From Spartobacteria bacterium (GTDB lineage Bacteria > Verrucomicrobiota > Verrucomicrobiia > Chthoniobacterales > UBA10450), in NCBI GenBank assembly GCA_003134785.1, contig PLCN01000002.1, positions 219 through 64,218 of the forward strand: 64,000 nt of DNA. The letters are read 5' to 3'. This document shows, piece after piece, positions 26,389 through 55,076 of the stretch; position 1 is the stretch's first letter; the number at the start of each line of letters is the position of its first letter. Position numbers and translations under genes: made by a program. The notes below the pieces were generated by a model. That model was not told the DNA's origin, made no database searches, and saw nothing but the letters and a program-made list of their open reading frames with translations.

Positions 26389-26548
26389 ACTGGCTGGCGC
26401 GAACGCACGGCTCGTGGGAAGCACCTTATGCGCCTCTGCGCACAGGACAACCTTTGAACTGATAGACGACTCTGGCGCGAGGGCGCGACGGCTCCAACAC
26501 TTTTAAGATTGGAAATTAGAATGGCATCTGTTGAATGCAGCCAGCGCC
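26389..26548. promoter_or_regulatory. Divergent promoter region
   Basis: This 160-base gap separates the first gene of the minus-strand sugar operon from the plus-strand aldolase/dehydrogenase, so it must carry both promoters unless they lie inside genes. No operator or riboswitch was recognised. Confidence 0.35.
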
Positions 26549-28525
26549 ATGAAGAATCTTTGGGACCCAGCGGAAGCGAGCAAGTGTAAGTCCGAGCTGG
26601 AGCTGCGCGTTTATAGTTCACGATTGTTAGGCCGGGACGACACGCTCGTTCTTCACGGTGGCGGCAACACTTCGGTCAAGGTCAGGGAAAGGAATGCCGT
26701 GGGGGAGGAGGAAGAAATCCTCTACATCAAAGGGAGCGGCTGGGACCTGCAAACAATCGAAGCGGCTGGTTTCGCTCCGGTCCGCCTTGCTCCGCTGCTG
26801 AAACTCGCGCGACTCGAGGCGTTGCCGGACCCGCAGATGGTGAACGAGCTGGCGACCCAGGTCACGCGCGCCGGCGCGCCGGCTCCGTCAGTCGAAACCA
26901 TTTTGCACGCGATCCTGCCGCACAAATTTGTCGATCACACTCACGCCGACGCAGTGCTCGCAATCACGAACACCTCCGACGGCGAGAAGCGCATCCGCGA
27001 AATCTACGGAGACAATGTCGTGATCGTTCCCTACGTCATGCCGGGGTTCGACCTGGCCAAGGTTTGCGCGCGCCAATTCGAGGCGGAAGCAAGGCCATCA
27101 ACCATCGGGATGGTCTTGCTGCATCACGGCATCTTCTCCTTCGGAGCGACCGCGGAGGAATCGTACGGGCGGATGATTGAGTTAGTCGATCGCGCCGAGA
27201 AGTATCTCGAGCAGGAGAAAGCCTGGGATCTTGCGACTCCAAACGCGCATGGATCCGAGAAACCGATGCGCCTCGAGATCGCCGCGCTCCGACGCGAAGT
27301 CGCCACGGCCGCGGGCTCGCCGGTAATATTGTCCTCCCATTCGGACGGGAAATTTCTCGCCTTCTCGCAGTCTGCGAATGTGCGTGAAGTCTCGCAGCGC
27401 GGCCCAGCCACACCCGATCACATCCTCCGCACCAAACGCCTTCCCATGTTAGGCCGCGACGTGAGCGCCTACGCGGAAGCCTATCGCGAATACTTTGCGC
27501 GGAATGCCGCTCACGCGAAAGAACCCGAAACGATGTTGGACCCGGCGCCGCGCGTCATCCTCGACGCCGAACTTGGCGTGTGCTGCGTCGGGCGTTCCGC
27601 GAAAGAGGCGGGCATCGTCCGCGACCTCTACTGGCATACCATCGACGTGATCTCGCGAGCGGAAGCGCTCGGCGGTTATCGCGCTCTCTCGGAGAAGGAG
27701 CTATTCGATTTCGAATACTGGGATCTCGAACAAGCGAAGCTGCGCCACGCGGGCCAACCTCCCATTTTCACCGGCGAAATAGCCCTGGTCACAGGCGCTG
27801 CCTCGGGGATTGGTAAAGCTTGCGTAGAAGCTCTGCTAAAACGCGGCGCGGCTGTGATAGGTCTCGATGTTAGTCCTGGAGTTGCAACGACCGCCGGCCC
27901 GCGACAGGATTATCTCGGACTAACCTGCGACATCACTTCCGAGGAAGCCGTGACCGCTGCCTTGGAAAGTGGTGTCCGCGCTTTCGGCGGAGTGGACATC
28001 CTCATCCTTAACGCGGGAGTCTTTCCCGCGAGCGAGCCGATCGCGATCCTCCAGCCTAACGAATGGCGTCGCGTCTTCGACGTGAACCTGGACGCGAACC
28101 TGACGTTGATGCGCGAATGCCACCCGCTCCTGTCCCTGGCGCCAAAAGGCGGGCGCGTTGTCGTCATGGGATCGAAGAATGTCGCCGCGCCAGGACCGGG
28201 CGCCGCCGCCTACTCCGCCTCTAAAGCCGCGCTAACTCAGCTCGCGCGCGTCGCGGCCTTGGAATGGGGCGCCGCCGGCATTCGTGTGAACACGCTTCAC
28301 CCCAATGCCGTGTTCGACACCGGCATCTGGACGGAAGAAGTGCTCGAGGCCCGAGCCAGGAGCTATGGCTTGTCCGTCGAAGCCTACAAGCGGAACAACG
28401 TCCTCAACACAGAAGTCCGAGGCATCGACGTCGCCGAACTAGCAGCAGAGTTATGCGGACCTACTTTCGCCAAGACGACCGGCGCCCAGATTCCGATCGA
28501 TGGCGGGAACGATCGCGTCATCTAG
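26549..28525 (+). CDS. Class II aldolase / short-chain dehydrogenase fusion
   Basis: The protein has 658 residues from ATG 26549 (a TTG at 26531 is possible). Residues 1-400 form a class II aldolase: VLHGGGNTSVKV, FVDHTHADAVLAI (His-x-His zinc ligands) and MVLLHHGIFSFGATAEESY (third His). Residues 415-658 are an SDR: GEIALVTGAASGIGKACVEALL, ILILNAGVFP, VVMGS, YSASKAALTQLARVAALEW and RVNTLHPNAVFDTGIWTEE. This matches the bifunctional rhamnulose-1-phosphate aldolase/lactaldehyde dehydrogenase type. Inferred: cleavage of a deoxy-ketose phosphate with oxidation of the aldehyde, for catabolism or to feed the adjacent sugar operon. Its stop overlaps the convergent reductase gene by eight bases. Confidence 0.85.
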   Translation: MKNLWDPAEASKCKSELELRVYSSRLLGRDDTLVLHGGGNTSVKVRERNAVGEEEEILYIKGSGWDLQTIEAAGFAPVRLAPLLKLARLEALPDPQMVNELATQVTRAGAPAPSVETILHAILPHKFVDHTHADAVLAITNTSDGEKRIREIYGDNVVIVPYVMPGFDLAKVCARQFEAEARPSTIGMVLLHHGIFSFGATAEESYGRMIELVDRAEKYLEQEKAWDLATPNAHGSEKPMRLEIAALRREVATAAGSPVILSSHSDGKFLAFSQSANVREVSQRGPATPDHILRTKRLPMLGRDVSAYAEAYREYFARNAAHAKEPETMLDPAPRVILDAELGVCCVGRSAKEAGIVRDLYWHTIDVISRAEALGGYRALSEKELFDFEYWDLEQAKLRHAGQPPIFTGEIALVTGAASGIGKACVEALLKRGAAVIGLDVSPGVATTAGPRQDYLGLTCDITSEEAVTAALESGVRAFGGVDILILNAGVFPASEPIAILQPNEWRRVFDVNLDANLTLMRECHPLLSLAPKGGRVVVMGSKNVAAPGPGAAAYSASKAALTQLARVAALEWGAAGIRVNTLHPNAVFDTGIWTEEVLEARARSYGLSVEAYKRNNVLNTEVRGIDVAELAAELCGPTFAKTTGAQIPIDGGNDRVI

Positions 28526-29603
28526 TTTCCGGGACGAAGGCTGCGGTCCGCCTGATAGCATCGGTTAGCTTGATCTGCTGGAGGAGCCCTAGCTCTTCTG
28601 CCGCGCGCTGGCAGGAAGGAACATAGCGCTGGGGAGACTTAGTGGGATCGGGTCTTTCTTTCACGTGAACCATGGCGTTGCTACAAATTTCGGCCACGAG
28701 TTTGGCGAGGTCATGGATTGTGTGCGCGTCTTCTGAGCCGATGTTGTAGGCGCGACCAGGCTGGCCTTTGAGAAGAATTGTCCAGAGCCAGACAGCAAGA
28801 TCGGCGGCGTATAGGTAGGAGCGGGAAGGAGTGCCGTCGCCGTTTACCTGAATCGGTCCGCCGTGAAACGCGTCGCGGATGAAGTTGCCGATGGCGAAAT
28901 GAGCGTCCAGGGGAAGAAATGGGCTGACGAAAGCGAAGCAGCGGGCGATGAGCGGCTCCAGGCCATGCTGCTTTTGATAGGCCACGCAAAGTAGCTCTGC
29001 CAGTCGTTTGGCCTCGCCGTAGGCGGAGTTAGAGTTAAGAGGATCAGGGCCGCCCGGGTAGGTTTCTGGAATATGCGTTATTTCGCCGGGCTGGGAGCCA
29101 TAGACTGCGCCGGAGCTGGTGAAGAGAAAGCGTTTCGCGCCGGTCTCGACCGCGAAGTCCAAGGCTGCGTGTGTTCCCTGCGTGATCGTGTCGATCATGA
29201 GCAGCGGATTTTCGGCGTTCATGTTTGCGCTCGATTCGGTCGCGGCGTGGATAACAAACCCAAAGTGCGTGGGTCCTTTCGACCCGAGCCGGGAGCGAAC
29301 GTTGGCGGCCGTGAAACTGCGAACGTCCCCTCGCACGAAACTGATCGCGGGATGTTTGCCCAAGTGCGGAGCCCTGGCGACAAACGATTCCGCGTTACGG
29401 CTGAGCACAACCATGCTCGCGCCCAGACCTAACGAGTCATTCACGTGCACGAAACTCTCGAGGAGCCATCGTCCAAAGAAGCCAGTGCCGCCGGTGACGA
29501 AAATGTTTTGTCCGCGCAGCGGTTCCCACAGCCCCTTCGTATGCTGAAGAATGTGATCCAGGTCCGCGGCGAGCGGATTCTGGAAAGGCGGTGGCGAACT
29601 CAT
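28518..29603 (-). CDS. Extended SDR, CDP-3,6-dideoxyhexose reductase-like (copy 1)
   Basis: The protein has 361 residues. NIFVTGGTGFFGRWLLESF is the NAD-binding motif. FVIHAATESS, FTSSGAVYGSQPGE and YGEAKRLAELL (catalytic Tyr and Lys) mark an NAD-dependent epimerase/dehydratase. IQVNGDGTPSRSYLYAADLA binds the nucleotide sugar. It is a near copy of the gene at 33823-34938, with scattered substitutions and a different last 20 residues (ending in AAFVPETR). It overlaps by four bases the truncated rfbH copy upstream, reproducing the gene order of the intact cluster. Inferred: same final 4-keto reduction. Whether this copy still works, or has drifted to another isomer, cannot be told. Confidence 0.8.
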   Translation of the reverse strand: MSSPPPFQNPLAADLDHILQHTKGLWEPLRGQNIFVTGGTGFFGRWLLESFVHVNDSLGLGASMVVLSRNAESFVARAPHLGKHPAISFVRGDVRSFTAANVRSRLGSKGPTHFGFVIHAATESSANMNAENPLLMIDTITQGTHAALDFAVETGAKRFLFTSSGAVYGSQPGEITHIPETYPGGPDPLNSNSAYGEAKRLAELLCVAYQKQHGLEPLIARCFAFVSPFLPLDAHFAIGNFIRDAFHGGPIQVNGDGTPSRSYLYAADLAVWLWTILLKGQPGRAYNIGSEDAHTIHDLAKLVAEICSNAMVHVKERPDPTKSPQRYVPSCQRAAEELGLLQQIKLTDAIRRTAAFVPETR

Positions 29604-30076
29604 GCCTTATGACAAAACGCGCGAGTCGTTTCCACGATGTACTCGAGCATGGCGCGAGTAAGTCCGGGATAGACGCCGACAAAGATGGATTCGTTCATGA
29701 TCCGGTCGGCGCCGGTCATCTCGCCTACCACACGGATAGCTCCAGGATTTTCCTGACGCAACTGCACGAAGGCGGCCTGACGCAGGAGATTTCCACCGAA
29801 GAGCATTCGATTACCGATTCTGTGCTCTTCTAGATGACGTGCGAACTCTGTCCGGGTGAAAGGCGCTGTCGGTTTCACCAGCATCATGAAACCGAACCAC
29901 GAAGGCGAGCTGCGCGGACCGTTTTCGTTTTGCCATTCGAACCCTTTCGGCGTCCAGCCTTTGGCGTGGGTAGGCAAATGAAAATCGAAGAACTCCCCGA
30001 GACCGGCGAGACCTTGGCGAAGGTATTCCCAGTTAGCGCGGCGCGCTCCGACGAATGCGGGAAGCTTCTTGAGAGG
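29600..30076 (-). pseudogene. Truncated C-terminal copy of rfbH
   Basis: From LKKLPAFVGARRANWEYLRQ to AFCHKA this frame repeats the last 150 residues of the intact RfbH at 34935-36380 with few changes. Homology stops abruptly at about 30074, next to a hairpin (30085-30115). The missing 330 residues include the cofactor and iron-sulfur regions, so the fragment cannot be a working dehydrase. The stop overlaps the start of the reductase copy exactly as in the intact cluster. Confidence 0.85.
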
Positions 30077-30084
30077 GGAGCGGA

Positions 30085-30115
30085 TGGGGTCGTGTCTTTT
30101 TTAGACGCGACCCCA
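30085..30115. repeat. 12-bp stem hairpin at the duplication breakpoint
   Basis: TGGGGTCGTGTC, a seven-base T-rich loop, then GACGCGACCCCA pair over 12 bases with one G-T mismatch. It lies 10 bases beyond the point where rfbH homology ends, and shares its GGGGTC core with the elements at 32402-32486 and 33813-33836. Confidence 0.7.
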
Positions 30116-30141
30116 TTATTTTCCACAACGAGGAAAACCAT

Positions 30142-30768
30142 TTACTCGACTACAGTAATCGAATTGAGTCTGACTCGAATCGCTGTGGCTATTGCATCAA
30201 CGGCCTGAACAAAACCCTCTTTCATTCGTTTAATCTCCTCCCTGCGTCGAAGAAAATCGGTCTCAGGCGCCATCATATCAATAAGTTGGTCGATGGATAG
30301 CTCTGTGATTCCGTGACAGCTTGCGTGGACTGTTTCTGTGTAGAAGGGCTTGTTATCGTCAATGGTGCACCGCAGCGATTCCCACGCTTCAACGAATCCT
30401 TTTCGAAGGTTCTCATAGTATTTATTGCCCTCTTCCGGGGTGGGAAAAGTTGGCTGCACCGTGTGGTACAACCTGAAAAAGCGAGCGCGGACTCCATTAG
30501 CATGTCTCATTAACTCTTGGTAAATAAGAAACTCTTTTTCGAACTGAACCTTGTGGACATGGACTTTCTTTTCGACTTCTCCGGCGAGAAGTTTTTGGCT
30601 GCTCTCCAACTTATCTCTTAGCTGTGTGAGTTCCCGCTGGAGCTTTACATCTTCGCTTCGGGCGATTCGACTCGCCCAAACCTTGCCAAGCCATGCTGAC
30701 AAGGCACACACGATTGCATATGCGATGGCGTTTTCGTTTAGATTGTTGAGCAACTCAGAAACCATCAA
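30142..30768 (-). CDS. Unknown protein with one membrane helix and a coiled coil
   Basis: The protein has 208 residues and was not recognised. A membrane segment (AIAYAIVCALSAWLGKVWAS, residues 14-33) is followed by a charged coiled coil from about 38 to 85, then a helical region with PTPEEGNKYYENLRKGFVEA. The likely topology is membrane-anchored with a cytoplasmic body. It starts 13 bases after the stop of the next membrane-protein gene and looks co-transcribed with it. Base composition is visibly AT-richer than in the polysaccharide genes around the block, so transfer is likely. Defence or stress roles are conceivable but nothing in the sequence shows one. Confidence 0.65.
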   Translation of the reverse strand: MMVSELLNNLNENAIAYAIVCALSAWLGKVWASRIARSEDVKLQRELTQLRDKLESSQKLLAGEVEKKVHVHKVQFEKEFLIYQELMRHANGVRARFFRLYHTVQPTFPTPEEGNKYYENLRKGFVEAWESLRCTIDDNKPFYTETVHASCHGITELSIDQLIDMMAPETDFLRRREEIKRMKEGFVQAVDAIATAIRVRLNSITVVE

Positions 30769-30781
30769 AAATGTTGCCCGC

Positions 30782-31468
30782 CTAACTAGGCGTTGGCTCG
30801 ATTACGATTTTATTTTGACCAGCGACGGCAGCAAAAATTTCCGCTCGGTCCACTAGATTACGCATTGCGAATTTCATTTGCGTGACCTCAGCTAAGATAA
30901 AAAATAAGAATCCCCAAAGGCATGACATCGCCGCGAACGCAAAATTATGTCCGAAGTTGCTGCGAAGCCACCAAGCCGTTGCTAAGCAAAAGAGGGAAAA
31001 TACAACGATGGCAAAAGTGATGGTTGGTGCGGTCGATTTATTGGCTGTGTAATTTTGCGCGGCGAAACGCGATGCTGCAAGAGATAACAAGATGCCTAGC
31101 AACAGCCACCAGTCCCGCTTCACGATAGCGAGAATTGGAAAGAGGACAAAAGGCGCGAATTGATACCCGCAAGCGAGGGTTGCAAACAGCGCTCGCTCTC
31201 GATGATTCGTGATGGTGTAGGGTTCGACAAGCCAGCGGACCTTGGCTGTTTTGTTCTTAATCGCTTCAACGAAGGCTGTATGTCCGTATTGCTGATTTGT
31301 CGCAAATATCCAATCTCGCAGATAATCTGCGAGCGGCTTGAAAGTGTGCCCACCGGCACGCGCAGTCGAAGCTTCGGAAAGCCATTTTTCTACCTGTCTA
31401 TCGAAGGCGGGATTATTCCCATAATCGAAGACCGAGTAGAGCTTAAGCATGTCAACGTCATCACTCAT
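30782..31468 (-). CDS. Unknown membrane protein
   Basis: The protein has 228 residues and was not recognised. A soluble N-terminal half of about 100 residues (LYSVFDYGNNPAFDRQVEKW...) precedes four hydrophobic segments: FAPFVLFPILAIV, WLLLGILLSLAAS, ITFAIVVFSLFCLATAWWL and FAAMSCLWGFLFFILAEV. A soluble tail ends the protein. It sits between two other unknown membrane genes with gaps of 13 and 27 bases, suggesting one transcript. AT-rich composition sets it apart from flanking sugar genes. Confidence 0.65.
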   Translation of the reverse strand: MSDDVDMLKLYSVFDYGNNPAFDRQVEKWLSEASTARAGGHTFKPLADYLRDWIFATNQQYGHTAFVEAIKNKTAKVRWLVEPYTITNHRERALFATLACGYQFAPFVLFPILAIVKRDWWLLLGILLSLAASRFAAQNYTANKSTAPTITFAIVVFSLFCLATAWWLRSNFGHNFAFAAMSCLWGFLFFILAEVTQMKFAMRNLVDRAEIFAAVAGQNKIVIEPTPS

Positions 31469-31495
31469 TGTGGGGCTACCGAACTGGAAATTCGG

Positions 31496-32257
31496 TTAGG
31501 TATTGTCCCGTGCGCATTTCGTCAACGCAATCACAGCCACAAATATTGCTCCAATAACGAGATAGCCTTTTCCGAGTTCCCAAACATATCGCTGCCGCCA
31601 GACAAACGGGCGCAAGCCACGTAAGCGCCTTCTTTCGCGTTCGTCATCTTGGATTGACTGGCGGTATTCTTCCTCACGCTCCGGCGGCGTAAGCTTGGCG
31701 AAGTCATTAGCCCACTCAGCGGGCAAGTCGCTCATGTAGCGACCGTATTCTGTAATCCTCCGTGCAACCTCCTGCTCTTGGTCCGGCGTATAGCCTACCC
31801 TCTCCGTGACTATCCATTCAAACCCATTCCAGTGCCACCCCACATCTCCATCTGCTGTGACCCTCGCAGCCATTTCGAGCAACTGCTGTTTTCGTTCTTT
31901 TAGCCCCGTACGCTTTTCAGAATCGAACCGTCCTGAAATCAACGCGACTAAGAGAAACAGCGAAAATCCATCGACTGCTAACCACTTCCCTCTGCTCATA
32001 TGGAGAGGCAGAATGGGATTGAAAGCCACGGTCAGCAGGGCAAGGACGAATAGCATGACCTTGTGTGCCCGGCGCGAGAACGCGATTAAAGTGAGCAAGA
32101 AAACGGCGAAGCAAAACCATCGCAGCAAGCCGTAAAAACTCCGCGTTCCTTGGCCGATAATCGCCACGCAAAGGAGTACGGCGGAGATTATCCATGCAGT
32201 AAAAAGGCTGAGTTTGTTCCACGGATTTCCGTGACTTGGCTCAGGTTGGCTTTGCAT
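31496..32257 (-). CDS. Unknown membrane protein with charged C-terminal half
   Basis: The protein has 253 residues from ATG 32257 (an earlier GTG-type start would add 11 residues). Four helices occupy residues 18-110: LFTAWIISAVLLCVAIIG, LLRWFCFAVFLLTLIAFS, VMLFVLALLTVAFNPILPL and WLAVDGFSLFLLVALIS. The pair NPILPLHMSRGKWLAVDG resembles small DUF6804-type membrane proteins. A Trp-containing soluble part (DVGWHWNGFEWIVTERVGYT) follows, then a highly charged helix (PPEREEEYRQSIQDDERERR) and a last hydrophobic segment. No function is assigned. It probably shares a transcript with the two genes downstream. Confidence 0.6.
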   Translation of the reverse strand: MQSQPEPSHGNPWNKLSLFTAWIISAVLLCVAIIGQGTRSFYGLLRWFCFAVFLLTLIAFSRRAHKVMLFVLALLTVAFNPILPLHMSRGKWLAVDGFSLFLLVALISGRFDSEKRTGLKERKQQLLEMAARVTADGDVGWHWNGFEWIVTERVGYTPDQEQEVARRITEYGRYMSDLPAEWANDFAKLTPPEREEEYRQSIQDDERERRRLRGLRPFVWRQRYVWELGKGYLVIGAIFVAVIALTKCARDNT

Positions 32258-32401
32258 ACAGGGCCATTGTGCGGCGTTTGGAACAGGCAAAGCAAGAAGA
32301 TAGTGTTACCAACTAACGAGTGAATCGCCAACTCAGCACCGAGCGGTGCGCATTAAAGAAGATGAACTGTTTAAGTCTCGAAGGGGTCCGAAGGTCTCGA
32401 A

Positions 32402-32486
32402 GGGGTCGGTCCTCACTTTCGACACTCACCGCAGAGTCGACTTCCTGAAATCCAAAAACATTGTGTCGATAGTGAGGACTGACCCC
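32402..32486. repeat. Inverted repeat of a GGGGTC...GACAC element
   Basis: A 24-base arm at 32402-32425 (ggggtcggtcctcactttcg then acac) faces its imperfect complement at 32463-32486, with a 37-base spacer. Two mismatches separate the arms. I associate such 'ggggtc...cctcact...gacac' palindromes with REP-like elements moved by Y1 (RAYT) transposases in soil bacteria, but no transposase gene is present here. Confidence 0.65.
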
Positions 32487-32531
32487 CTGTTGATTTCCCA
32501 ATGGTAATTCGGAGTGCCGTTGCCTAAGGCA

Positions 32532-33296
32532 TTATCTAGTCCCGCTCTTTAATTCGTCTAGGAGCGGCTTTAGGTATCCAAAGCTATACGGGCTCGCAAC
32601 CTTAACTCTCAATATTCCAGTCTCTTTTGGGAAGAACCGTTCGAATGAAGCATCCTTTACTAAATTACTCACGAAAATCTGCCAATGAATCCCAGCAATA
32701 ATAAAGCCGTAGGCTTTTGTCGTAACGCCATTGCGAGTCCGTCTAAGTCTTAGCGGTTGCGAAAAGAATGCAGGCAGGGGCTTGAAATCATCGCTGGTTA
32801 CTAGGACAGTAAATACGCAACCGTAGCGGGAATCTCTACCAGGATTGCTGGTGAGCAGCATCTTTCTAAGTTGCTCTAGCTTGCGAGCGTTTAACTTAAC
32901 GTGGCAGTAGTACAGATCCTTTGATACCGCCATTAGCCAGAGGGTAGATAGGATTAGTAGCTTTAGTTTCGGGTATTCTATGTTACCAAACTCAAAATAT
33001 GGATGTCTTGGCGGCTGCCTCGTTGGACTTGTAGCGTGAAAGAACAAGGGAGCACAGTAACTTTCCCACTCGCTGCGTCTTTGCTCACACCGTCTGCATA
33101 ACAAATACTCCTTAAATCCATCTTGGCGCGCAGGTATCCTAACCTCGGGATTATTTATAGCGACAGTGTTAAAGGCTCTTTGCGTTTTGAATAATCCACT
33201 ACCTCGCCAGAAGAACTTAGAGACGATATGCGATTCTTGGAGCTGTGCTGTTTTCAAGCATAGCTTACAAATTCCGATAGGTGCTTTCTTCGCCAT
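32532..33296 (-). CDS. Unknown protein with CxxC...SH zinc-ribbon/HNH-like start
   Basis: The protein has 254 residues. The opening GICKLCLKTAQLQESHIVSK, followed by LLCRRCEQRRSEWE at about residue 65-78, gives two CxxC pairs and an SHI that together resemble the zinc-binding and first-His parts of HNH endonuclease-type domains (C-x2-C ... S-H ... C-x2-C). A matching downstream catalytic Asn/His is not obvious, so nuclease activity is only a possibility. The rest (150 residues, alpha/beta) was not recognised. It is separated from the next gene of the block by 274 bases that hold an inverted repeat, so it may be a separate unit. AT-rich, probably acquired. Confidence 0.6.
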   Translation of the reverse strand: MAKKAPIGICKLCLKTAQLQESHIVSKFFWRGSGLFKTQRAFNTVAINNPEVRIPARQDGFKEYLLCRRCEQRRSEWESYCAPLFFHATSPTRQPPRHPYFEFGNIEYPKLKLLILSTLWLMAVSKDLYYCHVKLNARKLEQLRKMLLTSNPGRDSRYGCVFTVLVTSDDFKPLPAFFSQPLRLRRTRNGVTTKAYGFIIAGIHWQIFVSNLVKDASFERFFPKETGILRVKVASPYSFGYLKPLLDELKSGTR

Positions 33297-33822
33297 CTTC
33301 GCGGTAAGTAAGACAGGCGTGCCAGTTCTCTAGTAGGCCTGTTCTTAAAATCAACCTTCGGGCGGAACGATGGGAGCAGTCAACATATTTTGAAATGAGC
33401 ACCCTAAAGGGTCGTTTTCGAAAGCCGAGGCGAGCGCTGTTTCGGAACCTATCGTTAGATTCCGCAAATGCACTACGGCTTATCCGCCTTGGTCGAGAGC
33501 TTCTGCGGTGCCCAAGTTATCTCGTTCTCCGCTCAGTTCGCCCTTTGGTGCAGGTGCTCCTGAACGCTGCTCGCCGGGACGTGGTTCAGCCTTCGTTAGT
33601 TTCTGTCCCCGACGCGAGAAGCCCGGTTTGCCGACGGTGACGCAAGTGCAGGGGTCGGGTCGAAGTGACAAGTGGCGAGTATGAAGCAACCGTTCCGTCG
33701 AGGTTCAACTCCGAATATCTTCGCGAGCGGGACTGACGGTCATGTTTAACGTTAGCCCCAGTTACTCGATTTTCGTGAATGCTCCCTAGCCGCCTTGATC
33801 GAGGGGGCAGAAGGGGTCAGAG
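33297..33822. other. Intergenic stretch at the right edge of the island
   Basis: No convincing gene. An 81-codon plus-strand frame (33395-33640) has no recognisable feature and no ribosome site. At the end, 33813-33836 reads ggggtcagagctaagtattg then acac, a single arm of the same element type as 32402-32486, directly abutting the second copy of the reductase gene. Confidence 0.5.
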
Positions 33823-33836
33823 CTAAGTATTGACAC
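33813..33836. repeat. Single GGGGTC...GACAC element
   Basis: This 24-base element shares the GGGGTC start and GACAC end with both arms at 32402-32486. It overlaps the last codons of the reductase gene (33823-34938), which may explain why that copy has a longer, different C-terminus from its twin. Confidence 0.55.
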
Positions 33837-34938
33837 TCCTATTCTGAGCTTTCTCTGAATCGTTGGCGGTGAAGGTTGCGGTCCGCCTGATAGCATCGGC
33901 TAGCGCGATTTGGTGGCTAAGCCCTAGTTCTTCTGCCGCGCGCTGGCAGGAAGGAACATAGCGCTGGGGAGACTTAGTGGGATCGGGTCTTTCTTTCACG
34001 TGAACCATGGCGTTGCTACAAATTTCGGCCACGATTTTGGCGAGGTCATGGATGGTGTGTGCGTCTTCGGAGCCGACGTTGTAGGCGCGACTGGGCTGGC
34101 CTTTGAAGAGGATCGTCCACAGCCAGATGGCAAGGTCGGCGGCGTATAGGTAGGAGCGGTAAGGAGTGCCGTCGCCGTTTACCTGGATCGGTCCCCCACG
34201 AAGCGCGTCGCGGATGAAGTTGCCGATGGCGAAATGAGCGTCCAGGGGAAGAAATGGGCCGACGAACGCGAAGCAGCGGGCGATGAGTGGTTCCAGGCCA
34301 TGCTGCTTTTGATAGCTAGCGCAAAGTAGCTCTGCCAGCCGTTTCGCTTCGCCATAGGCGGAGTCAGGGTTAAGAGGGTCGGGGCCGCCCAGGTAGGTTT
34401 CTGGAATGTGCGTCATTTCGCTGGGCTGGGAGCCATAGACTGCGCCCGAGCTGGTGAAGAGAACGCGTTTCGCGCCGGTCTCGACCGCGAAGTCCAAGGC
34501 CGCGCGTGTTCCTTGTGCAATCGTGTCGACCAGGAGCAGCGGCTTTTCCGCGTTCATGTTTCCGCTCGATTCGGTCGCGGCGTGAATGACAAAGCTAAAC
34601 TGGGTGGGTCCTTTCGATCCGAGCCGGGAGCGCACGTCGGTGGCCGTGAAACTGCGAACGTCGCCTCGCACGAAACTGATCGCGGGATGTTTGCCGAGGT
34701 GGGGAGCTTTAGCGACAAATGATTCCGGATTACGGCTGAGCACAACCATGCTCGCGCCTAGACCTAACGAGTCGTTCATGTGCACGAAACCCTCGAGCAG
34801 CCACCGCCCAAAGAACCCAGTCCCGCCGGTGACGAAAATATTTTGTCCGCGAAGCGGTTCCCACAGCCCCTTCGTATGCTGAAGAATGTGATCCAGATCC
34901 GCGGCGAGCGGATTCTGGAAAGGCGGTGACGAACTCAT
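33823..34938 (-). CDS. Extended SDR, CDP-3,6-dideoxyhexose reductase-like (copy 2)
   Basis: The protein has 371 residues from ATG 34938, overlapping the rfbH stop as ATGA. Motifs: NIFVTGGTGFFGRWLLEGF (cofactor), FVIHAATESSGN, FTSSGAVYGSQPSE, YGEAKRLAELL (Tyr/Lys pair), QVNGDGTPYRSYLYAADLA. Position directly after rfbF-G-H argues that it reduces the 4-keto group of a CDP-3,6-dideoxyhexulose, the step done by RfbJ (abequose) or RfbS (paratose) in enteric bacteria. Which isomer results cannot be read. The last 15 residues (ANDSEKAQNRSVNT) differ from copy 1 because a repeat element has joined the end of the gene. Confidence 0.8.
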   Translation of the reverse strand: MSSSPPFQNPLAADLDHILQHTKGLWEPLRGQNIFVTGGTGFFGRWLLEGFVHMNDSLGLGASMVVLSRNPESFVAKAPHLGKHPAISFVRGDVRSFTATDVRSRLGSKGPTQFSFVIHAATESSGNMNAEKPLLLVDTIAQGTRAALDFAVETGAKRVLFTSSGAVYGSQPSEMTHIPETYLGGPDPLNPDSAYGEAKRLAELLCASYQKQHGLEPLIARCFAFVGPFLPLDAHFAIGNFIRDALRGGPIQVNGDGTPYRSYLYAADLAIWLWTILFKGQPSRAYNVGSEDAHTIHDLAKIVAEICSNAMVHVKERPDPTKSPQRYVPSCQRAAEELGLSHQIALADAIRRTATFTANDSEKAQNRSVNT

Positions 34939-36380
34939 GCCTTCTGACAAAACGCGCGAATTGTTTCCACGATGTAGTCGAGCATGGCGCGAGTAAGTCC
35001 GGGATAGACGCCGACAAAGATGGATTCGTTCATGATCCGATCGGCGCCGCTCAATTCACCCATGACGCGGATGGCTCCGGGATTTTCCTGGCGCAATTGC
35101 ATAAAGGCGGGCTGACGCAGGAGATTTCCACCGAAGAGCATTCGATTGCCGATTCGGTGTCCTTCGAGGTGACGCGCGAATTCGGTCCGGGTGAAAGGCG
35201 CTGTCGGTTTCACCAGCATCATGAAACCGAACCAGGAAGGCGAGCAGCGCGGACTGTTTTCGTTTTGCCACTCGAACCCTTTCGGCGTCCAGCCTTTGGC
35301 GTGGGTAGGCAAATGAAAATCGAAGAACTCTTCTAGACCCGCGAGACCTTGGCGAAGGTATTCCCAATTAGCGCGGCGCGCTTCGCCGAACGCGGGCAGC
35401 TTCTTGATCTGTTGCCGGCCGATCGCGGCCTGGATATCGAGCGGCTTCAAGTTATAGCCGAGATGCGAGTAGATGTATTTGTGGTCGTAACCGAAAGGCA
35501 GCTCGCCGAGTTGCCACTCGAAACGTTTGTTGCAGGTGTTCGCTTTTCCGCTCGCGCACCAGCAGTCGCGGCCCCAATCACGGAAGCTTTCGACCAGCAC
35601 GCGCAGATACATTCGGCCCACAATATTGATCGCGCCGCCTTCGCCGAGCGTGAGATGATGCGGCGGGTAGAAGGATTGCGTCGAAAGGTCGCCGAACGTT
35701 CCGGTGAAGCGGGGCCTGGCATTGGCTTCGGCCGAGGTGTAGGTGGCGCCGAGTGCGTCGCAGTTATCTTCGATAAGCCAGAGTTCATGCCGCCGGCAGA
35801 AGTCGGTGATCGTTTCGAGATCAAAGGGATTACCCAACGTGTGGGCCATCATGACCGCTTTCGTTTTTCCAGAGACGAAAGCTTCTTCGAGCCGATCGAG
35901 CCGCGCATTCAAAGTAAGCGGATCGTTATCGAGAAAGACTGGCACGGCGCCGTTCTGGATGATCGGCGCGACCGTGGTAGGAAACCCTGCGGCGCAGGTG
36001 ATGACTTCATCGCCGGCTCTGATCCGGCGTTCTCCGAGCTTATGACTGGTGAGCGCGGACAGCGCGAGCAGATTCGCGGACGAGCCGGAGTTGACGAGGA
36101 TGGACCGTTTGACGCCGAGGAACTGCTTCAACTCCTCTTCGAAAGCTTCACCTTCCGTTCCGAGAGTAAGCCAAAAATCCAGCGTGGAAGAAACAGCCGC
36201 TTCCACTTCGTCTTCGGTAAAGACGCGGCCGGCGTACGGAATCGTTGTCTCACCCGGCACGAATTCCGGCTGCGCGCCATCGCCATCGCCATAGCCGGGA
36301 CGGTTGGCGCCATGCGTCAGCGCGGAATACTCGCGAGTGAGGCCGAGAATTTCGGCTTTCAATTCAGCGGCGGTTTTCAT
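34935..36380 (-). CDS. rfbH: CDP-6-deoxy-D-xylo-4-hexulose-3-dehydrase
   Basis: The protein has 481 residues from ATG 36380. It has the DegT/aminotransferase fold with SILVNSGSSANLLALSAL (phosphate loop), AGFPTTVAPIIQNG, LIEDNCDALGATY (Asp to the pyridine N), and SFYPPHHLTLGEGGA, where His stands in place of the Schiff-base Lys. This His replacement is the hallmark of the PMP-dependent E1 dehydrases. DCWCASGKANTCNKRF supplies clustered Cys for the [2Fe-2S] centre. It makes a 3,4-glucoseen intermediate that an NADH reductase (RfbI/E3) reduces. No such reductase gene is seen in this window. It lies 14 bases after rfbG and overlaps the reductase SDR downstream. Confidence 0.92.
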   Translation of the reverse strand: MKTAAELKAEILGLTREYSALTHGANRPGYGDGDGAQPEFVPGETTIPYAGRVFTEDEVEAAVSSTLDFWLTLGTEGEAFEEELKQFLGVKRSILVNSGSSANLLALSALTSHKLGERRIRAGDEVITCAAGFPTTVAPIIQNGAVPVFLDNDPLTLNARLDRLEEAFVSGKTKAVMMAHTLGNPFDLETITDFCRRHELWLIEDNCDALGATYTSAEANARPRFTGTFGDLSTQSFYPPHHLTLGEGGAINIVGRMYLRVLVESFRDWGRDCWCASGKANTCNKRFEWQLGELPFGYDHKYIYSHLGYNLKPLDIQAAIGRQQIKKLPAFGEARRANWEYLRQGLAGLEEFFDFHLPTHAKGWTPKGFEWQNENSPRCSPSWFGFMMLVKPTAPFTRTEFARHLEGHRIGNRMLFGGNLLRQPAFMQLRQENPGAIRVMGELSGADRIMNESIFVGVYPGLTRAMLDYIVETIRAFCQKA

Positions 36381-36394
36381 CCGGGTGCGGGAAT

Positions 36395-37513
36395 CTAGCC
36401 GGGATGAGCGGACCATGCCATCCCGAGCGTGCGCGCCCTCTCTGCATACGCCTGTATTTGATCGCGCGTAACCTTCAGCGCGTCGGACCCCTGGGCGACA
36501 GCGTTATACCAGTGAATCGTTTCCGCGACGGCTTCCTCGAAATTCCACGCAGGTTGCCAGCCGAGAAGATGACGCGCCTTGTCGGTGGAGAGATTGAGAA
36601 GGCCGGATTCGTGGAGAGCGGCGGGATCGTGGCGATCGATCCATTTTCCGGGCACGTGCTTTAAGATTTCTTCGAGTAACTCTTCGACCGTGCGGTTGGA
36701 TTCCAGTTCGGGACCAAAGTTGAACGCGCTGGTAAACTCCGCGGCTGAGGTTCGTTCCCGGAGCGCCGGATGGGCCAGGACGGCGGCGAGCCACAGGTAA
36801 CCGCTCAATGGTTCGAGCACATGCTGCCACGGTCGGGTCGCATTCTTGTTCCGGACTGGGATGGGTTCGCCGCGGCCTAACGAGCGGATGGCGTCGGGCA
36901 CAATCCGGTCGGTGGCCCAGTCGCCGCCGCCGATCACGTTCCCGGCCCGAGCGCTGGCGATCTTCACCGGCGGGTTTTTGGAAGGATCGAAGAAGGAGCT
37001 GCGATAAGCGGCGATGGCGATCTCCGCCGCGGCTTTGCTCGAGCTATAGGGATCGTGGCCGCCCAGCGCGTCTTCTTCTCGATAGGCGTACTGCTGTTCC
37101 CGGTTGAGATAGCACTTGTCGGTCGTGGCAAAGACAGTGGCGCAGGGTTCTCGCCAGTGGCGCAGAGCTTCCAGCACGTGGACGGTGCCCATTACGTTTG
37201 TCTGATAGGTCTCGACCGGTTCCCGGTAGGAATACCTAACGATAGGTTGAGCAGCCAGATGAAAGACAAAATCGGGCGCGGCGGAACGGATCGATTTCTC
37301 CACCGCCGCCGCATCACGGATGTCGCCGATCTCGTGATCGAGCTGCGACGAAAGGCCAAGCTGCTCGAACAAGCTCGGAGTAGTCGGCGGCTCCAGGGCA
37401 AATCCATGCACGCGGGCTCCGAGCTGGAGAAGCCAGGTGGCCAGCCACGAACCTTTGAAGCCGGTATGCCCCGAGAGCCACACCTTCTTGTTCTCGAAGA
37501 CGCCGCCGAACAT
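36395..37513 (-). CDS. rfbG: CDP-glucose 4,6-dehydratase
   Basis: The protein has 372 residues. VWLSGHTGFKGSWLATWLLQ is the Rossmann motif typical of RfbG (GHTGFKG). HLAAQPIVRYSYREPVETYQ, FATTDKCYLN, YSSSKAAAEIAIAAYR (catalytic Tyr and Lys), ARAGNVIGGGDWATDRIVPD and TRPWQHVLEPLSGYL are all in the order of CDP-glucose 4,6-dehydratases. It converts CDP-glucose to CDP-4-keto-6-deoxyglucose, the substrate of RfbH. Five bases separate it from rfbF and 14 from rfbH, an operon rfbF-rfbG-rfbH-SDR. Confidence 0.93.
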   Translation of the reverse strand: MFGGVFENKKVWLSGHTGFKGSWLATWLLQLGARVHGFALEPPTTPSLFEQLGLSSQLDHEIGDIRDAAAVEKSIRSAAPDFVFHLAAQPIVRYSYREPVETYQTNVMGTVHVLEALRHWREPCATVFATTDKCYLNREQQYAYREEDALGGHDPYSSSKAAAEIAIAAYRSSFFDPSKNPPVKIASARAGNVIGGGDWATDRIVPDAIRSLGRGEPIPVRNKNATRPWQHVLEPLSGYLWLAAVLAHPALRERTSAAEFTSAFNFGPELESNRTVEELLEEILKHVPGKWIDRHDPAALHESGLLNLSTDKARHLLGWQPAWNFEEAVAETIHWYNAVAQGSDALKVTRDQIQAYAERARTLGMAWSAHPG

Positions 37514-39668: not shown

Positions 39669-39702
39669 GCACGAGAAGCTCGCATCATCGGCTCTCTCCA
39701 AA

Positions 39703-39768
39703 CTGTAGCGGCGGTCTATGACCGACGTCTTTCGAGTACGCTTCGGCGGTCATAGACCGCCGCTACAG
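39703..39768. repeat. Palindromic repeat copy A (CTGTAGCGGCGGTC family)
   Basis: The left arm ctgtagcggcggtctatgac and the right arm gtcatagaccgccgctacag are exact complements around a loop of about 26 bases containing cgtctttcg. It is one of five copies in this window (others at 42468, 43135, 43902 and 54960). It could fold into a stable hairpin after yidD. Confidence 0.85.
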
Positions 39769-39855
39769 GATAATGAGGCCGCGCCTTCCAGTTCTTGCGC
39801 ATGGTTTCGCACGCCGGTTTTACAAACGATCCGGTCGCGTGTAGAGAACCGGACT

Positions 39856-42422: not shown

Positions 42423-42467
42423 AGATTTTGAACCGCGGATTACGCGGAGGTCACGGATATTGGAATC

Positions 42468-42533
42468 TGTAGCGGCGGTCTGTGACCGTCGTCTTTTGAA
42501 CACGCTTCGGCGGTCATAGACCGCCGCTACAGG
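42468..42533. repeat. Palindromic repeat copy B
   Basis: Same family as 39703-39768. Arms ctgtagcggcggtctgtgac and gtcatagaccgccgctacag, loop containing cgtcttttgaacacgcttcg. It lies downstream of the tail-collar trio, preceded by the dispersed motif aaccgcggattacgcggagg (42432-42451). Confidence 0.85.
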
Positions 42534-42679
42534 AATCAATCCGCGCTTACGCTCCCAATTCTCTATTGTTCCAACCCTCGCTCCCATCCCCATCCGTGCT
42601 ATCCGAGTAGTCCGCGGTCGCCCCTCTCAAATTTCATCGTTGTGTCCCGTGGTGACCTTGGTGTGAGATTGCTCCCACT

Positions 42680-43153
42680 ATGATCGCATTACGTCCCATC
42701 ACAGCGGAGGACGATTTGTTCCTGGCCGCCGTGTATGCGAGCACGCGGGCGGAGGAGCTGGCGGTCACGGGCTGGAGCGATGAAGACAAGGCGGTTTTCT
42801 GCCGGAGGCAGTTCGATGCGCAGGCGGCGCATTACCGGGAAAACTATCCGGGCGCATCGTTTCAAGTAATCGAGCGCGACGGAGTTTCGATCGGACGATT
42901 GTATGTCGCGCGGTGGGAAAAAGAGATCCGCATCGTCGATATCGCACTGCTACCCGAACATCGCGGAACCGGCATCGGGACGAAACTATTGCGCGAGTTG
43001 CAGGAGGAGGCGCGGTCAGTCGGCAAGTCCCTCACGATCCACGTCGAGCGCTTCAATCCGGCGCTGCGGCTCTATGAGCGGCTCGGGTTCAAACAGGTGG
43101 AAGATAAAGGCGTGTATTTGCTGATGAGTTGGAACTGTAGCGGCGGTCTATGA
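42680..43153 (+). CDS. GNAT-family N-acetyltransferase
   Basis: The protein has 157 residues. IALRPITAEDDLFLAAVYAS opens the fold, IRIVDIALLPEHRGTGIGTK LL is the acetyl-CoA loop (R/Q-x-x-G-x-G/A), and HVERFNPALRLYERLGFKQV the last strand and helix. Small GNATs often accompany tail-collar trios in bacterial genomes, which suggests a shared locus. The last six codons and the stop (43135-43153, encoding NCSGGL*) belong to palindrome copy C, so the original end of the gene has been replaced. The fold is complete before that point, so activity is probably kept. Confidence 0.85.
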   Translation: MIALRPITAEDDLFLAAVYASTRAEELAVTGWSDEDKAVFCRRQFDAQAAHYRENYPGASFQVIERDGVSIGRLYVARWEKEIRIVDIALLPEHRGTGIGTKLLRELQEEARSVGKSLTIHVERFNPALRLYERLGFKQVEDKGVYLLMSWNCSGGL

Positions 43154-43204
43154 CCGTCGTCCCCGCTCCTGAATGCGGTCGGCGGTCATAGACCGCCGCT
43201 ACAG
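43135..43204. repeat. Palindromic repeat copy C, overlapping a gene end
   Basis: Arms ctgtagcggcggtctatgac and gtcatagaccgccgctacag, loop with cgtccccgctcctgaatgcg. The left arm reads in frame as Cys-Ser-Gly-Gly-Leu-stop and so terminates the GNAT gene. Confidence 0.85.
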
Positions 43205-43901: not shown

Positions 43902-43967
43902 CTGTAGCGGCGGTCTATGACCGCCGTTTTCGAACAGGCTTTCGGCGGTCATAGACCGCCGCTACAG
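43902..43967. repeat. Palindromic repeat copy D
   Basis: Arms ctgtagcggcggtctatgac and gtcatagaccgccgctacag, loop with cgccgttttcgaacaggctt. It lies between the DUF6916 stub and the following gene. Confidence 0.85.
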
Positions 43968-45165: not shown

Positions 45166-48100
45166 TTGAAAACTCACCCGCTCTCCCCGCTTATCGTGCT
45201 TAAGCCGAACTTCCTTAGAATCGTTCGCCATTGTTTCCTAGCCTGCGCGCTACTCTGGACCACCGCCGGATCCGGGTGGGCCGTCGCTCCAACGGTGACT
45301 GCCAGTTTGAACGACGCATTTCCGAATCACAGCAACGGCGGCTTCGCGTTGCAGGGCGATAACATTACTTACACGCTCACAATCGGGGCCGGCGGCGTGC
45401 CGATAACGAACGTAACTTTCAACCCCAATAGCCCGACTAACCCCACGTCGACGTTCACGACCGACGTGGCGGGATCGCTCGCCGCCTCGCCTGTCGGCAT
45501 TGATGACACCTACCCGCAGACCGTGATCGGCAATGTCTCGATCAATTCCGCGAACATTCCGTACAGCGTCGTAACCAATGATTATTTAGGCCTAAATCCC
45601 ACGGCGACGATCGATTTGGTGCAGGCGGTGTCGACCGTGGTGACCAACACGATCACGGCAACCACCGCGCAGGGTGGCACCGTCGTGATGACCGTTTCCG
45701 GCGCAGGCATGGGACAGTTTACCTACAATCCGCCAGCGGGCTTTCGTGGGCCAAACGACACCTTCACGTATCGGCTCACTGATAACGCCAATGCGGCGAG
45801 CGCGGCCTCGAACCGCACTGCCACCGTGACGATCCCGATCAGCGGCATGGTTTGGTTTATCAATAACGCGGCGGGGGCCGGCGATGGAAGGCTCTCCTCG
45901 CCGTTCAACACGCTGGCCGCATTCCAGGCGGTGAATGACGGCACCGGCAACCACCCCGCGGCCAACGACAACATCTTCATCTACGAAAGCGCCACCGCTT
46001 ATGCCGGACCGGTTACGTTGTTGAGCGGACAAAAATTGATTGGGCAGGATGCGACCGCGAGTCTTTCAACAATCACTGGCCTGAATCTGCCTACGGGCAG
46101 CGCCTCGTTCCCGGCGATGAATAGCGGGAACGGGACTGTGACGAATCTCGGCGGGACAGTAACGCTGAATACGAATACGACCGTGCGTGGCCTCAGCATC
46201 AACTCCACAACCAGTACCGGCATGACCGACCCGGCCGGTGCGATCACCGGCGTGAATGTCAGCGAGGTGGATATTACGACGACAACCGGCACAGCCGTTA
46301 GTTTTTCGAGTATTGGGGGAACGCTTAGCTTTGATGGGTTGACGACGACGGGCGGAACAGGCGCAAGCCTCACAGGCAGCAACGGCAGTGCGACCTTCAA
46401 CTTTACAGGCGTGTCGATCAGTTCGGGCGCTAACGCAGGTTTCGCCGCCACTGGTGGCGGCACTCTCAACATCACCGGAGCTGCTAATACGATCACTTCG
46501 ACTACCGGAACAGGCCTGAACATTACGAGCACAACCATCGGTGCCAATGGCGTGACGTTTAAGAGCATTACGTCCAATGGGGCCGTCAATGGCATCGTGC
46601 TCAACGGCACTGGCGCGAACGCTTTCACGGTCACCGGCGATAATAATGGCAGCACCAACAACGGCTCGGGTGGAACGATCCAGAACACAACCGCCGAAGG
46701 CATTCTTACCAATTCAACCGGAACCATCAGCCTTGGCTACCTAAACGTCAGCAACAGCGGCACGAAGGGTATCAGCGTGACCGGTTCCACCGGCTTCACG
46801 CTCGACCACAGCAACGTGACGGACAGTGCCGGAAACGGAACCAATGGCGGCACGACCGACGAAGGTGTCAACCTGATCAACAACACCGGGACAATCACTC
46901 TGTCGAACGACGTCGTGGATTCTGCCCCGAACAATCAGGTCAACGTCGACAACAACAACACCAACCTGACTGCCATCAACGCGAGCAATTCGACGTTCAA
47001 GTGCACTGCCGGCAGAGCCTGCGATCCGTCGGGGTCCGTAGGCGGGAACGCTTTCCTCGTGCAGATCCGCGGCACGTCGGTGCTGACCTCAGCAAATGTG
47101 CAGAGCTGCACGTTTACTGGCGTGCGCGGCACTGGTCTCCAGGTTTCCGCCGTCGATACGGCGACCATCGGTTCATCGAGCCTTGGCGTGATTACCGCGC
47201 CTGCCGCGAGTCATAGCTTCGTCGTCCAGAACAGCACATTCGGCAATAATAACGCCGGCATGGATTTCGACCAGGGCCAGCATTCGAACAACACGTTCCA
47301 AATCCTCAACAACACACTCACCTTTCACAAATCTTCCTCCATCAACGCTCAAGCAAATGCGGGAGTCGGCTTCAGCGGCTCGATTACCGGCAATATCAAC
47401 GGCAATCAGATCGGTACGCAGGGCACCAAGGACTCTGGTTCCAACTCGAACGGCGCCGGCGTCCGTTTGATCGCTCAAGGCGATTCCACGCAAGCCTACT
47501 TCACGGTCGATAGTAACCAAATCCGCGAAGTGCCGAATTCTGACGTCATCATCGCGTTCAGCCAGAACGGCGCCACGCCAAACACAGGAGGCACGCTCCC
47601 GGCGCGTCGCTTCAAGATCACCAACAACATTCTTCCGCAGCCGAGCGGCACGAACCAGAGCATCGGTTGCGGCGCCGGCGTCCCGTGCGGAGCGGCCGAC
47701 GGCAACATCTTCGTTTATGCGGACGAAAACAACACGAACTGCGCATTGATCACCGGCAACACTGTCTTTGACGCGACCACGATGAACGGCTCCTGGGATG
47801 TTTACCTCGCGGCGCGCACAGGCCCTCCGGCCGGCGCTGCGATAACCGTCCAGACCGGGGCAAACGGCGGCAACTCGGCTGCTGCGATTGCCTTCATCAA
47901 TGCCAACAACACTCTGAACGGCGCGAACAAGAGTCACGATGAGGGTGGAAACGTGACCACAGTGGCCAGTTGCGGATCCTTCCCGCCGCTCATGTTCACT
48001 CCGGGCGGAGTCGAGAAGGCCGACGTAAAGCCGGTCGACTTGGCGACGCGAACATTCGTCCCCAGGTTGGATCCCGTCATTGCGCCTGAGACGAAGCCAG

Positions 48101-54100: not shown

Positions 54101-54951
54101 CGCCTGGATCTACCGCTACCCCCACACCTACGCCGACACCTACCCCCACGCCAAGCGCGACTCCGGCCCAGGCCTTGAACATCTCGACCCGGCTGCGGGT
54201 GGATATAGGCGACAGGGTCATGATTGGCGGCTTCATCGTCACCGGGAACGCATCCAAGCCAGTGGTCTTGCGCGGGCTCGGGCCATCGCTGGCTGGTTCG
54301 GGCATACCAGCGGCCACGGTCCTGGCTGATCCGGTGCTGGAGCTGCGCGGAGCGAATGGCTCGTTGATCATGAAGAACGACAATTGGAAAGACGACCAGC
54401 GTGCGTTGATTGAAGGGACAGCCTTCCAGCCGACGGACGATCATGAGTCGGTCATAGTAGCTACGCTGCCGGTTGGGGCTTACACGGCCATCCTGAGCGG
54501 AAAGAGTCAAACAACCGGCATAGGGCTGGTGGAAGTCTACGATAACGATCAAACGGTCGACTCGGAGCTGGCTAACATCAGCACGCGCGGGTTTGTCCAG
54601 ACGGGGGATAACGTGATGATTGGAGGCTTTACTCTGGGGAACAATCCGACGAGCACGCGGATAGCGGTGCGAGGCGTCGGACCTTCACTGACCGCTTTCG
54701 GACTAAGCAGTGTGTTAGCTGATCCCACGCTCGAGCTGCACAATGCGAACGGGACCATCATGATTTCGAATGACAACTGGACCGATGATGCCGCCATGGC
54801 GGCGCAGTTGACCGCAAATGGTCTGGCCTTAACGGACCCGAAGGAATCGGGCATCTTCACTACCCTGCCGCCGGGGCCGTTTACCGCTATCCTGGCCGGC
54901 AAGAGCGGTGGCACCGGCATAGGTCTGGTCGAGATCTATAATCTGAAGTAG
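45166..54951 (+). CDS. Giant secreted multi-domain adhesin-like protein with metzincin motif
   Basis: The protein has 3261 residues from TTG. A signal peptide ends near residue 41. In order: Ig-like N-terminal part; right-handed beta-helix about 228-930; matrixin-like segment with [11 protein letters not shown] (His1099, Glu1100, His1103, Asp1109) and the Met-turn LMYG; I-set-like Ig 1223-1308; three about 90-residue Ig units ('[17 protein letters not shown]') 1309-1585; a second beta-helix of CSLREA/choice-of-anchor Q type 1588-1945; a Big-1-like unit; nine units of 98-103 residues (2043-2938; [20 protein letters not shown] core); a Thr/Pro linker to 3002; and two about 125-residue C-terminal domains ([22 protein letters not shown]) seen in Verrucomicrobiota surface proteins. 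Inferred: surface adhesin/protease attached through its end domains. Confidence 0.85.
51293..53980 (+). repeat. Nine-unit tandem protein repeat array
   Basis: Nine units of roughly 300 bases inside the giant gene. Units 3 and 6 share 105 identical bases (52117-52221 and 53017-53121), exactly 900 bases apart, including synonymous sites. Other neighbouring units share shorter exact tracts, the sign of recent copying or gene conversion. Confidence 0.8.
53983..54171 (+). repeat. Thr/Pro low-complexity linker
   Basis: About 63 codons of the form (Thr-Pro)n with Ala, encoded by near-repeats of ccgacacctaccgccacgcc. It bridges the repeat array and the two C-terminal domains of the giant protein, and is expected to be extended and perhaps a wall- or envelope-spanning spacer. 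Confidence 0.8.
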
Positions 54952-54959
54952 CTCTTCCT

Positions 54960-55022
54960 CTGTAGCGGCGGTCTATGACCGCCGAAGGATACATCTCGGC
55001 GGTCATTAGACCGCCGCTACAG
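54960..55022. repeat. Palindromic repeat copy E
   Basis: Arms ctgtagcggcggtctatgac and a right arm ggtcattagaccgccgctac with one inserted T, loop with cgccgaaggatacatctcgg. It lies right after the stop of the giant gene and could act as its terminator. Confidence 0.85.
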
Positions 55023-55076
55023 GAAGAGATTCGTGCCGGCGAAAATTGAGAGTCTCGAAGTGGCGGAAACCTGCAG

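What the first reader, a model, noticed from the sequence alone, without database searches (positions are those of the whole stretch)
30142..33296. Four unrecognised genes forming a possible undescribed module
One gene encodes a membrane-anchored coiled coil, two encode polytopic membrane proteins, and one has CxxC...SH...CxxC spacing suggestive of an HNH-like nuclease. Three are within 30 bases of each other. They are compositionally foreign and sit between repeat elements, the usual setting for accessory or defence genes. No known system has this combination to my knowledge.
Basis: inference. Interest (0 to 1): 0.55.

Follow-up and report, generated by a model that had tools for sequence, protein, structure and literature searches.

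The report
Lone accessory genes, one probably anti-phage
Four small foreign genes that look like one system are four unrelated accessory genes inserted between two copies of a sugar-gene segment; one belongs to an undescribed family that sits in phage-defence neighbourhoods of many bacteria, so it is a good candidate anti-phage gene.

Summary
The four ORFs are real: A membrane-anchored coiled coil; B and C membrane proteins; D CxxC-SH-CxxC. They are AT-richer than their surroundings and lie in a 3.8-kb insert. The 'repeats' around it are a 1,537-bp, 91% direct duplication of the host's own epimerase/aminotransferase segment.

The four-gene module is not supported. In samples of 288-387 genomes of the phylum no genome but this one holds A with D, or D with C; B has no homologue anywhere I looked. 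None of 24 D loci has A, B or C nearby, nor any shared neighbour.

Single genes: C is a DUF6804 protein. D is a widespread lone gene (unnamed phage families), with a confident predicted fold that matches no solved structure. A (phrog_26391) is the interesting one. Its relatives lie beside CBASS, Avs4-like plus AbiE, TIR/GmrSD, type III methylase and type IV restriction genes (5 of 9 distinct loci, the other four not or only partly scanned), and in the P2-phage gpA-portal defence hotspot of E. coli (6 of 8 inspected). No Pfam, NCBIfam or PADLOC model names it. A is most likely a single-gene, membrane-associated anti-phage protein; that is inference from neighbourhood, not a test.

The parts
30142..30768 (-). 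Gene A, 208 aa (207 from the ATG): N-terminal hydrophobic helix, long coiled coil, C-terminal helices; member of phrog_26391
   Evidence: (E 1.7e-8, profile 18-202 of 203)
30782..31468 (-). Gene B, 228 aa: soluble N-terminal part plus 3-4 hydrophobic segments; orphan
31496..32290 (-). Gene C, 264 aa (253 from an alternative ATG): DUF6804 membrane domain with a C-terminal extension of its own
   Evidence: (PF20619, 48.6 bits against cut-off 27)
32532..33296 (-). Gene D, 254 aa: CxxC-SHIxP-CxxCE family (phrog_19960, phrog_26326, phrog_7075)
32385..32490 (.). Strong hairpin between D and C; separates D from the A-B-C cluster
   Evidence: RNA fold -46 kcal/mol; no other copy in this genome
30075..30130 (.). 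Hairpin at the left edge of the insert
   Evidence: -33.5 kcal/mol
30073..33870 (.). Insert of 3,798 bp between the two copies of the duplicated host segment
   Evidence: absent from same-genus genome G007
28536..30072 (.). Left copy of the duplicated host segment: NAD-dependent epimerase gene plus the 3' part of the aminotransferase gene
   Evidence: 91.0% over 1,537 bp
33871..35407 (.). Right copy of the duplicated host segment; runs on into the complete aminotransferase gene (34935-36416); epimerase gene lacks its own 3' end
33480..33689 (-). 5'-truncated remnant of a small Cys-rich protein gene that is whole in same-genus genomes

Best explanation
The locus is an accessory insert that brought together four genes of independent origin; it is not a conserved four-gene module. 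Shown: the insert lies between two direct copies of a host sugar-gene segment and is absent from a same-genus genome; A, C and D belong to different, patchily spread families that do not travel together. Inferred: it came in by one crossover of a DNA circle that carried a piece of the epimerase-aminotransferase segment, or by insertion at a tandem-duplication joint. Each gene acts alone. A is most likely a single-gene anti-phage protein: its N-terminal helix anchors it at the inner membrane, the long coiled coil makes it an oligomer, and the C-terminal helical part senses a phage product or event at the membrane and stops the infection (exclusion or abortive infection). A as defence gene: about 0.6; this membrane mechanism: about 0.3. 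D is most likely a zinc-bound, HNH-like nucleic-acid protein with an S-H...E in place of the usual D-H...H/N (about 0.35). C and B are membrane proteins without a known partner; C's relatives also ride on prophages.
For: Duplication and insert. No co-inheritance: only G000 in both the A and the D list; 24 distinct D loci without A, B or C; 264 neighbour proteins, no cross-locus pair at E<=1e-4. A next to defence genes: L048 type III methylase, L050 Avs4-like and AbiEi/AbiEii, L051 TIR-STAND and GmrSD, L062 type IV restriction, L116 a full CBASS set NucC-cyclase-HORMA-HORMA-TRIP13. A in the P2 gpA-portal hotspot: phage Cartapus and 6 of 8 inspected E. coli loci, a place shown to carry anti-phage systems (PMC9122126, section 10 read). 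The other 2 of 8 are degraded copies beside DprA, in one with an annotated phosphoribosyltransferase. D: confident model (pLDDT 86.5, pTM 0.87), invariant C, C, S, H, C, C.
Against: Window A is only 20-33% identical to its relatives, so function may have shifted. 'Beside a defence gene' was scored for 5 of 9 distinct loci; L049 lies at a contig end with no recognised neighbour, neighbours of L063 and L064 were not scanned, and L117 gave no hit in the two neighbours scanned. No matched background rate was computed. Prophage hotspots also carry genes with other functions (said in PMC9122126). PADLOC methylase models are broad. In the window itself A has no known defence gene beside it. A-B-C lie 13 and 27 bp apart on one strand, so they may be co-transcribed and could work together here.
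Confidence: 0.62

Rival explanations
1. A-B-C (with or without D) is a genuine operon-encoded system, perhaps young and found in few lineages: membrane coiled coil, two membrane proteins and a zinc nuclease acting together against phage.
For: Same strand, gaps of 13 and 27 bp for A-B-C; shared AT-richer composition; A's family is defence-associated.
Against: No second occurrence of any two of the genes side by side; A, C and D relatives live alone; D is 241 bp away behind a strong hairpin.
Confidence: 0.12
2. The genes are integron cassettes: small promoterless accessory genes captured by the genome's integron.
For: This genome has an integron-integrase gene (465 bits, above the curated cut-off) with attC-like sites near it; cassette genes are typically unrelated lone genes (recalled).
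Against: The same attC scan found nothing in 29901-34000; gaps A-B and B-C are too short for an attC; the integrase frame holds a stop and lies on another contig.
Confidence: 0.06
3. Prophage or other mobile-element cargo left after decay of the carrier.
For: Relatives of A, C and D occur on viral contigs and, for A, phage records.
Against: No phage structural, integrase or transposase gene was seen among the ORFs of the insert (read by eye); only a truncated Cys-rich gene remnant.
Confidence: 0.15

Closest known systems
phrog_26391 (phage protein family, unknown function)
   Same: Gene A matches it over nearly its whole length; so do the prophage relatives L062 and L063 (132.9 and 172.5 bits)
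   Different: Window A is a distant member (35 bits) and lies in a chromosome outside any visible prophage
Single-gene systems of the P2-like phage gpA-gpQ hotspot (Rousset et al. 2022, PMC9122126)
   Same: A relatives lie in exactly this place in phage Cartapus and in 6 of 8 E. coli loci inspected
   Different: No evidence that this gene was tested there; its supplementary tables could not be read
DUF6804 (PF20619)
   Same: Gene C matches above the curated cut-off
   Different: Gene C has a long C-terminal extension that the short relatives lack
phrog_19960 / phrog_26326 / phrog_7075
   Same: Gene D matches all three
   Different: All are of unknown function; D is not on a phage here
HNH endonucleases (zinc-bound)
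   Same: Order CxxC - xHIxP - CxxC(E) and the predicted strand-strand-helix order resemble it (likeness recalled)
   Different: Ser for the usual Asp/His before the His; no profile or fold match

Membership tests
Conserved four-gene module | The genes recur together in other genomes | tested here: not met
   no other genome or locus with A and D, or D with C; one genome (G364) with A-like and C-like genes on different contigs; B nowhere else
Known anti-phage system (PADLOC 2.0.0) | Match to a model of a known or candidate system | tested here: not met
   Searches (four window proteins; 10 relatives): 0 matches
Defence-associated gene family (for A) | Relatives repeatedly adjacent to unrelated defence systems or in defence hotspots | tested here: met
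   5 of 9 distinct loci; P2 hotspot; no matched background rate was computed
Defence-associated gene family (for A) | Protects cells against phage | not testable with these tools
   needs a plaque assay
Defence-associated gene family (for D) | Relatives repeatedly adjacent to defence systems | tested here: inconclusive
   L077 inside a type I restriction operon, L042 beside methylase, helicase and TIR genes; of 21 loci scanned I placed hits only in these two, and others lie by housekeeping genes
phrog_26391 | Full-length profile match | tested here: met
   E 1.7e-8, protein 20-207, profile 18-202 of 203
DUF6804 | Score above Pfam gathering cut-off | tested here: met
   48.6 bits against 27
HNH endonuclease | Profile match to an HNH family | tested here: not met
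   none for D; no real similarity to one phage protein taken as HNH by eye
HNH endonuclease | Fold match to a solved HNH structure | tested here: inconclusive
   no PDB match at E<=0.001 and none at Z>=2; a small motif inside a larger fold can be missed
HNH endonuclease | Catalytic D/H-H and N/H residues | tested here: inconclusive
   His23 and Ser22 invariant, Glu71 and Glu78 at least 90%; classic residues (recalled) absent
Integron cassette | attC site after each gene | tested here: not met
   none in 29901-34000, while the same scan finds two in the genome's integron contig (L095)

The most novel reading that the evidence does not exclude
Gene A's family (phrog_26391 and relatives) is an undescribed anti-phage family spanning several phyla: one gene for a membrane-anchored long coiled coil, carried by P2-like prophages, small integrative elements and defence islands, that stops other phages at the membrane.
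Probability: 0.5. Interest if true: 0.55.

Novelty: new member of a known kind. Interest (0 to 1): 0.4.

Why it matters
The module claim falls, which keeps a false 'system' out of the lists. In its place stands a testable family: A is found in 52 of 5,426 complete E. coli genomes, some copies labelled 'valyl-tRNA synthetase', in a hotspot where single genes were shown to block phages. If A protects, it adds a membrane-linked defence gene that present catalogues miss, and ready laboratory material exists (phage Cartapus).

Tried and rejected
Four-gene system: rejected for lack of co-occurrence. Integron cassettes: rejected. B homologue in G080 (E 5e-4): rejected, it lies antisense to a long ORF that looks like malate dehydrogenase. 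A match in G371 (E 2.7e-4): treated as chance; it holds a stop, overlaps long ORFs on the other strand and is not among the profile search's hits. D match in G208 covers only part of an 855-aa ORF and was not used. An Rfam search of 28000-37000 gave only one hit, far below its cut-off. PDB sequence searches with A and D profiles gave nothing. Fold search with the A model was not run: mean pLDDT 73, pTM 0.53, mostly one long helix. Plasmid searches with window A, B, C gave no match, with D one weak match; phages with D none. Literature: DUF6804, three A accessions, two phrog names and PF20619, coiled-coil/P2 terms and a DefenseFinder/P2 query gave no paper on A, C or D. In PMC9519451 I saw only two passages; the membrane-anchored coiled coil named there is a DUF4041 protein with a DNA-cleavage domain, which A lacks. 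Supplementary tables of PMC9122126 could not be read.

Rows dropped: the neighbour scan of D used 103 of 133 listed neighbour ORFs (viral loci L059-L061 and several short ORFs left out). Loci L041/L066, L043/L074, L058/L073 and L064/L065 are the same or nearly the same place and were counted once.

Full report
What is there. Four minus-strand ORFs occupy 30142-33296. Going downstream in their own direction the order is D, C, B, A. The gaps are D-C 241 bp, C-B 27 bp and B-A 13 bp; the D-C gap holds a strong hairpin. They lie in 3,798 bp (30073-33870) between two direct copies, 91.0% identical over 1,537 bp, of a segment with an NAD-dependent epimerase gene and the 3' part of an aminotransferase gene (gene names are mine from the translations). 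The right copy continues into the whole aminotransferase gene; the left copy continues into the host's left flank. Same-genus genome G007 has one copy and no insert. Between the copies more changes fall on third codon positions (27, 10 and 60 changes at positions 1, 2 and 3 in the epimerase part), so both have been kept as genes. This layout is what one crossover of a circle carrying an internal piece of that segment would leave; a tandem duplication with an insertion at the joint would look the same. Inference.

The insert also holds a truncated remnant (33480-33689) of a small Cys-rich protein gene whose whole form occurs in G004 and G007, with a matching stretch in G006. No phage or transposon gene was seen in the insert by eye.

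Do the genes belong together? With the single proteins, 288 genomes of the phylum gave, besides this one, 8 with D, 5 with A, 6 with C and none with B, and no genome on two lists. With profiles, A was in 6 others of 386 and D in 10 others of 317, again with no genome on both lists. One genome, G364, has an A-like gene and a C-like gene, on different contigs. In 24 distinct D loci neither A nor C by profile nor B by single sequence was found, and an all-against-all comparison of 264 neighbour proteins (window A, B and C included) found no shared neighbour. So D is a lone gene, and the module is not supported. B remains an orphan, so co-inheritance with B could not be tested.

Gene D. Relatives occur in bacteria of several phyla, one archaeal MAG and viral contigs and match three phage families of unknown function. 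Across 24 rows C10, C13, S22, H23, L65, C67, C70 and Y108 are invariant. The model is confident (pLDDT 86.5, pTM 0.87) and matches one uncharacterised phage protein (E 2.9e-10, TM 0.67), but no solved structure. Motif order and strand-strand-helix order resemble a zinc-bound HNH, with Ser for the usual acid; that reading is inference. One relative lies in a type I restriction operon, between the specificity gene (with one gene in between) and the restriction gene (L077), another beside methylase, helicase and TIR genes (L042). Others lie by housekeeping genes, so a defence link is weak.

Gene C is DUF6804; relatives lie on viral contigs and in arrays of small genes (by eye).

Gene A. It matches phrog_26391 end to end. 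Model: a helix of residues 2-100, then shorter helices, moderate confidence (pLDDT 73, pTM 0.53). Five have a PADLOC-recognised gene directly beside A: L048 type III methylase (E 1.1e-202), L050 Avs4-like (1.1e-12) on one side and AbiEii (2.3e-81) with AbiEi (3.3e-34) on the other, L051 TIR protein (ThsB-like 2e-30) and GmrSD-type genes, L062 type IV restriction enzyme (2.7e-58), and L116 NucC, cyclase, two HORMA and TRIP13. Of the other four, L049 lies at a contig end, L063 and L064 sit in prophages next to an integrase-like ORF (by eye), and L117 lies in an element with an integrase-like ORF; neighbours of the first three were not scanned with PADLOC, and two ORFs of L117 were scanned without a match.

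In annotated records A relatives are the last gene of P2-like phage Cartapus, after gpA, a gene next to the repressor region of Pseudomonas phage Riah, and a gene near an integrase on an L. plantarum plasmid record. Cartapus A has DNA matches in 52 of 5,426 complete E. coli genomes. Of eight inspected, six lie between the replication endonuclease and the portal gene of a P2-type prophage; in one of these the next gene, a DUF4145 protein, weakly matches PD-T7-4 (E 1.2e-6). Two (90-91% identical, degraded) lie beside a DprA gene, in one with an annotated phosphoribosyltransferase. Rousset et al. (PMC9122126, section 10 read) describe this gpA-gpQ place as a hotspot with anti-phage systems, and a DprA-phosphoribosyltransferase pair as protective; they also say that some genes there have other functions. 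Window A against Cartapus A: 20% identity over 191 residues, E 5e-13 for the pair.

Mechanism. Shown: family, hydrophobic N-terminus in most members, long predicted helix, neighbourhood. Inferred: membrane anchoring, oligomerisation, phage sensing and arrest of infection. Not shown: any activity.

Novelty. A, C and D are members of sequence families already clustered in databases, without function. A's defence link is, as far as my searches go, not in print or in the libraries used; the libraries date from 2023 to 2026 and subscription papers are not held. I file the locus as a new member of a known kind (accessory and candidate defence genes), with family A as the lead worth testing.

Noticed in passing
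L095 (G000:C10:1-20000), 3321-3442, 3806-3929, 4489-5496: The genome carries an integron: integrase gene 465 bits to TIGR02249 with a stop in the frame, and two attC-like sites of 122 and 124 bp.
   Followed up: partly
L096 (G000:C22), 2609-2953: A second, partial copy of the integron integrase with nearly the same N-terminus.
   Followed up: no
window 39700-39770, 42464-42534, 43134-43204, 43902-43967, 54952-55028: Dispersed palindromic repeats of about 70 bp, several copies 80-91% alike.
   Followed up: no
window 45166-54951: ORF of 3,261 aa with internal tandem repeats (51582-53982 region, 63-70% alike in DNA), probably a secreted repeat protein.
   Followed up: no
E. coli records H23, H26, H28 and others: Copies of the A homologue in P2-like prophages are annotated 'valyl-tRNA synthetase', which this coiled-coil protein of about 203 aa plainly is not.
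   Followed up: partly
window 26531-28525: 664-aa ORF whose two halves look like an aldolase and a short-chain dehydrogenase fused; conserved in G007, where the phosphoheptose-isomerase-like gene lies on its other side.
   Followed up: no
L048:6033-10392: An A relative sits in an operon-like row between a type III methylase and a 604-aa protein without any PADLOC or Pfam match.
   Followed up: no
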